A DNA stretch of 64,000 nt from Streptomyces sp. TG1A-60. Lineage in GTDB: Bacteria; Actinomycetota; Actinomycetes; Streptomycetales; Streptomycetaceae. The position numbers were made by a program, and so were the translations under genes. The stretch is taken from positions 124,001-188,000 of the forward strand of contig NZ_CP147520.1 of the NCBI RefSeq assembly GCF_037201975.1, read 5' to 3'. The notes beneath the pieces are model-generated. The model made no database searches. It was given only the letters and a program-made list of their open reading frames with translations, and was not told where the DNA came from. Below are positions 42,158 to 58,612 of the stretch, piece after piece. Numbering within the stretch: position 1 is the stretch's first letter; each line of letters starts with the position of its first letter.

Positions 42158-58612
<16,455 letters not shown>

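What the first reader, a model, noticed from the sequence alone, without database searches (positions are those of the whole stretch)
50126..50137. Module B2 acyltransferase carries GAGH instead of YASH/HAFH: predicted ethylmalonyl or other rare extender
Seen: residues ~2826-2829 of the three-module PKS read GAGH, in a VN-GAGH-SPQV context that aligns exactly with VD-YASH-SAQV in other modules here; the AT also has GHSQGE. Known: YASH marks methylmalonyl, HAFH malonyl, and XAGH ethylmalonyl-CoA. Inferred: this module inserts an ethyl-bearing or bulkier branch next to an A-type hydroxyl. No crotonyl-CoA carboxylase/reductase is in the window, so the extender supply gene should lie elsewhere in the cluster or genome.
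Basis: partly seen in the sequence, partly recalled or inferred. Interest (0 to 1): 0.75.

Follow-up and report, generated by a model that had tools for sequence, protein, structure and literature searches.

The report
Polyketide enzyme choosing unusual side chain
One of thirty building-block selectors in a very large bacterial assembly line carries a rare signature, kept in related strains, that most likely makes it add a side chain longer than the usual methyl group; it is a new example of a known kind of enzyme, and the product is not identified.

Summary
It is 1 of 30 ATs in the assembly line (22 HAFH, 7 YASH) and kept in 6 of 6 orthologous proteins, so not a sequencing slip. The reading needs correction. 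GAGH is not chiefly an ethylmalonyl mark: with the motif masked, this AT groups with GAGH/AAGH ATs, including filipin-type terminal modules (25-row clade, 96/93), while TAGH (tylosin-type) ATs fall outside. The sought CCR exists at the upstream edge of the PKS gene run, 54.5 kb away; its sister clade's members sit beside GAGH or AAGH ATs. Best reading: an alkylmalonyl AT, longer than ethyl (about butyl to hexyl), in a roughly 29-module macrolide line. Against: Met331 is shared with TAGH ATs, the insertion before the motif is missing, and CCR family alone does not track chain length, since a solved octenoyl-CoA CCR scores as low as ethylmalonyl CCRs. Chain length unproven; known kind; interest modest.

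The parts
50126..50137 (-). GAGH specificity motif (replaces YASH/HAFH)
49655..50968 (-). AT region with linkers of module 2, 438 residues as used for searches and trees
   Evidence: Pfam Acyl_transf_1
50426..50443 (-). GHSQGE active-site serine motif
49976..49978 (-). Met331 of the AT region (Leu in methylmalonyl-type, Met in TAGH, Ala in filipin-type and AAGH ATs)
51182..52291 (-). KS domain of module 2 (Pfam N- and C-terminal parts)
48266..48787 (-). KR domain of module 2, A-type by recalled rule
47741..47941 (-). ACP of module 2
42158..58612 (-). Three-module PKS gene (5484 aa): AT motifs HAFH, GAGH, YASH
60195..64000 (-). PKS gene ending in the only thioesterase found in the gene run (gene continues past the window)
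2..19309 (-). Start of the PKS gene with the loading module (KS with VDAGQSSS, malonyl-type AT); gene continues past the window

Best explanation
The GAGH AT is an intact extender AT that loads a 2-alkylmalonyl-CoA longer than ethylmalonyl, most likely butyl- to hexylmalonyl-CoA, onto its ACP. Gly in place of Tyr and Ser of YASH removes side chains from the acyl pocket so that a longer branch fits (inferred). The extender comes from the cluster's own CCR, which reductively carboxylates a 2-alkenoyl-CoA (inferred from family). The KS extends, the KR reduces, and one alkyl branch is set next to a hydroxyl in a chain of about 60 backbone carbons built by one loading and 29 extension modules and released by one thioesterase (domain counts read from sequence; a single assembly line is inferred).
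For: 1 of 30 ATs; kept in 6 of 6 orthologous proteins. Motif-masked tree of 73 ATs: GAGH, AAGH, GAAH, GATH and AATH ATs form one 25-row clade (UFBoot 96/SH-aLRT 93), TAGH outside. Outside the motif: Ala215 in 8 of 8 orthologs, 9 of 9 filipin-type, 3 of 3 AAGH, 1 of 12 TAGH, 11% of 332 methylmalonyl-type; Arg275 in 8 of 8, 9 of 9, 3 of 3, 0 of 12, 1%. CCR at the edge of the gene run on the same strand, best solved match AntE, 589 bits; CCR tree places it with G577, G680 and G646 (99), sister to 15 CCRs (19-row node 85). Of 20 genus CCR loci with flanks, 8 of 8 GSHY loci have a GAGH AT, 2 of 2 GSHGAN loci an AAGH AT, 0 of the other 10 either. Papers: primycin GAGH (PMC7522111, passage); thailandin AT13 AAGH, butyl proposed (PMC6273641, passages); filipin III n-hexylmalonyl (PMC5187497, passage).
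Against: The one-residue insertion before the motif in 12 of 12 TAGH and 6 of 6 filipin-type GAGH ATs is missing in this AT and its orthologs, 7 of 7. Met331 is shared with 12 of 12 TAGH; filipin-type and AAGH have Ala. With the motif in, TAGH fell in the same 22-row clade (SH-aLRT 82); inside the masked clade the nearest joining node is weak (84/47) and the bootstrap had not settled. Best solved matches are DEBS ATs (453 bits) before the tylactone AT (405); the best-scoring fetched ATs are YASH (487 against 469 for the best GAGH). CCR family does not by itself give chain length: solved octenoyl-CoA CCR 4a0s scores 233 bits, like 3hzz/3krt (247/242), and 4gi2, named crotonyl-CoA carboxylase/reductase, scores 400. 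The residue aligned with AntE Val350 is Gly here, Tyr in filipin-type CCRs. CCR and GAGH are 54.5 kb apart, and the ATs near the CCR are HAFH. No product known.
Confidence: 0.55

Rival explanations
1. The AT takes ethylmalonyl-CoA, with the CCR (or the housekeeping CCR at 1143159) making ethylmalonyl-CoA.
For: Met331 shared with 12 of 12 TAGH ATs; TAGH in the same 22-row clade when the motif is included; the genome also holds a CCR with GSHFANYRE, as in 3hzz.
Against: TAGH ATs fall outside the clade when the motif is masked; Ala215 and Arg275 are filipin-type; GAGH neighbours are filipin-type modules.
Confidence: 0.25
2. The AT is promiscuous or takes another extender (propyl-, allyl-, isobutyl- or similar branched malonyl-CoA), giving a mixture of products.
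For: The cluster CCR has Gly at the AntE-350 position, and AntE V350G accepts a bulky substrate (PMC6164871, passage); AT residues are a mosaic of types; stambomycin module 12 and reveromycin take several branches (PMC5187497, passage).
Against: No direct evidence for any particular branched substrate; no FabH-like supply gene recognised by eye among the flanking genes listed.
Confidence: 0.15
3. A drifted methylmalonyl AT: GAGH is a neutral change.
For: Highest overall similarity is to YASH ATs and DEBS ATs; YASH register without insertion.
Against: Motif kept in three genera; grouping with GAGH/AAGH ATs with the motif masked; CCR in the cluster.
Confidence: 0.05

Closest known systems
Filipin-type terminal-module AT (GAGH), n-hexylmalonyl-CoA
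   Same: GHSQGE and GAGH, Ala215, Lys273, Arg275; CCR of the same family in the cluster; same clade with the motif masked
   Different: Theirs is in the last module before the TE with the CCR next door, has a one-residue insertion before GAGH and Ala331; here the module is internal, the CCR is 54.5 kb away, no insertion, Met331. That L063 is the filipin cluster is inferred from species name and layout.
Primycin module 18 AT (GAGH)
   Same: GHSQG and GAGH as reported (PMC7522111, passage)
   Different: Sequence not compared; primycin has 18 extender modules, here 29
Tylosin-type AT (TAGH), ethylmalonyl-CoA (substrate recalled)
   Same: AGH core, Met331
   Different: Thr for Gly, insertion before the motif, other clade with the motif masked
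Stambomycin module 12 AT
   Same: Giant macrolide line in which one module takes pentyl/hexyl-type malonyl-CoAs (PMC5187497, passages)
   Different: Extender made by an acyl-CoA carboxylase, not a CCR; sequences not compared
AntE, CCR of antimycin
   Same: Best solved relative of the cluster CCR, 589 bits
   Different: AntE Val350 corresponds to Gly352 here (counted); AntE-like GSHV CCRs form a separate clade

Membership tests
Modular type I PKS extender AT | GHSxG serine motif, catalytic His, Pfam Acyl_transf_1 between KS and KR | tested here: met
Methylmalonyl-CoA AT | YASH-type motif and clustering with YASH ATs | tested here: not met
   GAGH; groups with GAGH/AAGH when masked, though overall scores to YASH ATs are as high
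Ethylmalonyl-CoA AT, TAGH type | TAGH, preceding insertion, clade with tylosin-type AT | tested here: not met
   but Met331 shared and same clade when motif included
Longer-alkylmalonyl AT (GAGH/AAGH group) | GAGH or AAGH and clustering with such ATs with the motif masked | tested here: met
Longer-alkylmalonyl AT (GAGH/AAGH group) | One-residue insertion before the motif (seen in the filipin-type members) | tested here: not met
   38 here, 39 in 6 of 6 filipin-type GAGH
Longer-alkylmalonyl AT (GAGH/AAGH group) | CCR of the AntE/filipin family in the cluster | tested here: met
Longer-alkylmalonyl AT (GAGH/AAGH group) | Transfer of butyl- to hexylmalonyl from CoA | not testable with these tools
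   needs enzyme assay or product
Filipin-type terminal module | Last module before the TE, CCR adjacent | tested here: not met
   internal module; TE in another gene, CCR 54.5 kb away

The most novel reading that the evidence does not exclude
A second, separately shaped route to long-branch selection: GAGH in YASH register without the insertion, combined with Met331, in an orphan family of about 29-module macrolide synthases (orthologs named Kitasatospora, Microtetraspora and Herbidospora), whose branch has been retuned in evolution (GAGH, or GAAH in genome G680) along with its own CCR.
Probability: 0.3. Interest if true: 0.5.

Novelty: new member of a known kind. Interest (0 to 1): 0.33.

Why it matters
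ATs that accept longer alkyl extenders are wanted for making new macrolides. This AT has GAGH without the insertion, so it is close in shape to YASH ATs of its own assembly line, and the ortholog series (GAGH, GAAH) with its CCRs offers a natural test of which residues set branch length. It also shows how automatic ethylmalonyl calls for XAGH ATs can mislead, as reported for primycin and thailandin, and it predicts a side chain for a large macrolide whose product I could not identify.

Tried and rejected
Monazomycin as the product: its cluster paper gives 24 substrates (PMC11199612, passages) against 29 extension modules here; rejected. Gargantulide and quinolidomicin were only search words and not compared. 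A search for filipin with GAGH gave one irrelevant paper; GAGH with ethylmalonyl and acyltransferase gave only the primycin paper. Two separate assembly lines were considered: the CCR-to-TE part has no recognised loading module and the GAGH part no recognised TE, so one line is more likely. The AntE-350 position as a ruler of chain length was dropped (Gly here and beside AAGH, Tyr beside GAGH), and so was CCR family score alone, because the octenoyl-CoA CCR 4a0s scores low; for that reason the confidence was lowered from 0.6 to 0.55. Structure prediction was not run, because it would not separate branch lengths without docking.

Full report
What is there. The codons at 50137..50126 on the minus strand read GAGH, in RVRKVRVN-GAGH-SPQVEPLR, 102 residues after GHSQGE, in the 5484-residue three-module PKS at 42158-58612. 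Pfam finds KS, AT, KR and ACP in this module and lists no DH or ER there. The KR has AVWGGSG and no LDD, so it looks A-type (rule recalled). The Ser motif and the His are kept.

The setting. The window is G000:C1:124001-188000 of a 7.83-Mb one-contig genome. PKS genes lie on one strand from about 70.2 to 228.4 kb, with transporter, regulator and P450 genes among them. A recount gives 29 KS with a Cys active site, one loading KS with VDAGQSSS, 30 ATs (22 HAFH, 7 YASH, 1 GAGH) and, among six matches to a loose TE pattern, one in PKS frame that looks like a thioesterase, GHSGGG. The genes between CCR and TE show no loading module and the genes with the loading module and GAGH show no TE, so I infer one assembly line. 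The order of its proteins was not worked out. At its upstream edge lie the CCR (228645-229898), a type II thioesterase and a Sfp-type transferase (the last two named by eye, and NCBIfam gives the thioesterase only weak hydrolase hits). NCBIfam confirms the CCR, 561.6 bits against a cut-off of 378.55.

Conservation. A protein search listed 120 of 1088 scored proteins; six are 5375-5483 residues long with 70-84% identity over the AT region, and all six have GAGH in the second AT. G577 has it too (81%). The G680 cluster, with a CCR 80% identical, has GAAH at the corresponding AT (60%). No ortholog was among the named genome-contig loci, where the best match was 56% (records near the window's genome may be left out there).

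Phylogeny. Among 194 AT hits that were long enough, the first script tallied 6 GAGH and 7 TAGH; a stricter pattern over 705 ATs from loci, proteins and the own cluster gave 13 GAGH (own, 6 orthologs, 6 filipin-type) and 12 TAGH. The 6 GAGH ATs from named loci all lie in the module before a TE, with a CCR after it. For the first tree, 705 ATs were thinned to 623 and 166 chosen, with YASH, HAFH and other unusual types sampled at random; P0072 was dropped by the thinning. With the motif in, this AT and its orthologs fell in a 22-row clade of GAGH, TAGH and GATH/AATH ATs, SH-aLRT 82. With the motif masked (73 rows, better method), GAGH, AAGH, GAAH, GATH and AATH ATs formed a 25-row clade (96/93); TAGH fell outside; 3 YASH rows sit in a neighbouring 12-row group with TAGH and one VATH (82/71); CAGH and VPGH ATs lie elsewhere. 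The placement next to L161 and L169 is weak (84/47), and the bootstrap had not settled.

Residues outside the motif. In an alignment of 366 ATs (8 orthologs, 9 filipin-type, 3 AAGH, 1 GAAH, 1 other GAGH, 12 TAGH, 332 methylmalonyl-type), Ala215 and Arg275 are shared with filipin-type and AAGH ATs and rare in TAGH and methylmalonyl-type; Met331 is shared with TAGH and the GAAH AT, against Leu in 329 of 332 methylmalonyl-type and Ala in filipin-type and AAGH. Thr155 is shared with filipin-type and with 8 of 12 TAGH. So the AT is a mosaic, and this limits the chain-length claim. The insertion of one residue before the motif, in all TAGH and filipin-type ATs measured, is absent. 'Methylmalonyl-type' here means motif YASH, YAAH or FASH, not tested substrate.

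The CCR. Three CCRs in the genome pass the curated cut-off. The one at 1143159 has GSHFANYRE, as in 3hzz; the cluster's has GSHGSNTRE. Its best solved match is AntE (589 bits), then 9kva (513) and 4gi2 (400); 3hzz, 3krt, 6na3 and the octenoyl-CoA CCR 4a0s score 233-247. Closeness to AntE therefore does not by itself mean a long chain. In a quick tree of 45 CCRs it groups with G577, G680 and G646 (99), sister to 15 CCRs, 13 GSHY and 2 GSHGAN (19-row node 85; long branches towards the outgroup flagged). Flanks of 20 genus CCR loci: 8 of 8 GSHY beside GAGH, 2 of 2 GSHGAN beside AAGH, 0 of the other 10 beside either; in one of these 10, L149, the script did not recognise the CCR motif. In the flanks: L164 (GSHY) has GAGH; L161 (G646) has AAGH; L163 and L165, outside the 19-row node, have neither; L155 (G577, contig end) has no AT, and L157 (G680) has HAFH and YASH only, so in the closest relatives, as here, the unusual AT is not next to the CCR. 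Searches with this CCR, own genome included: 45 of 392 genomes of the genus at E <= 1e-150; 9 of 394 in a family sample and 2 of 394 in a class sample at E <= 1e-185.

Literature. Primycin module 18 (GHSQG, GAGH) was read as butyl-, pentyl- or hexylmalonyl although antiSMASH said ethylmalonyl (PMC7522111, passages). Thailandin AT13 has AAGH; ethylmalonyl was predicted and butylmalonyl proposed from the structure (PMC6273641, passages). Filipin III uses n-hexylmalonyl-CoA, and stambomycin module 12 takes pentyl/hexyl-type units by a CCR-free route (PMC5187497, passages). In ossamycin the isobutyrylmalonyl AT has SPGH (PMC6490886, passages). I read passages only.

Verdict. Shown: motif, conservation, clade, the CCR and its family. 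Inferred: substrate, pocket mechanism, single assembly line, product.

Noticed in passing
G000:C1 near 90.7, 190.4, 217.2 and 227.5 kb (outside the window): The PKS reading frame changes in mid-domain at four places in this assembly; sequencing errors or real damage cannot be told apart here.
   Followed up: partly
L178 (G680:C1:5772001-5792000): The related three-module PKS gene has ATs HAFH, GAAH and FSSH where this window has HAFH, GAGH and YASH, so two neighbouring specificity motifs differ.
   Followed up: partly
L169 (G577:C410): A second GAGH AT, with the one-residue insertion, in the same genome as an ortholog of the window's AT.
   Followed up: no
49976-49978 (-): AT position 331 is Leu in methylmalonyl-type, Met in TAGH and this family, Ala in filipin-type and AAGH ATs: a candidate branch-length residue.
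   Followed up: partly
21425-22600 (-): P450-like protein close to P450-derived glycosyltransferase activators (329 bits, cut-off 343) yet with a heme-type Cys; no glycosyltransferase recognised by eye among the flanking genes listed.
   Followed up: no
20349-21320 (-), 23875-24612 (+), 24667-26315 (+): DrrA-family ABC transporter ATPase, a permease, and a sensor kinase with response regulator inside the PKS gene run (for the ATPase; others named by eye).
   Followed up: no
G000:C1:44001-59000: A further gene set with another PKS-like protein and a PfaD-like protein lies beyond the cluster (named by eye).
   Followed up: no
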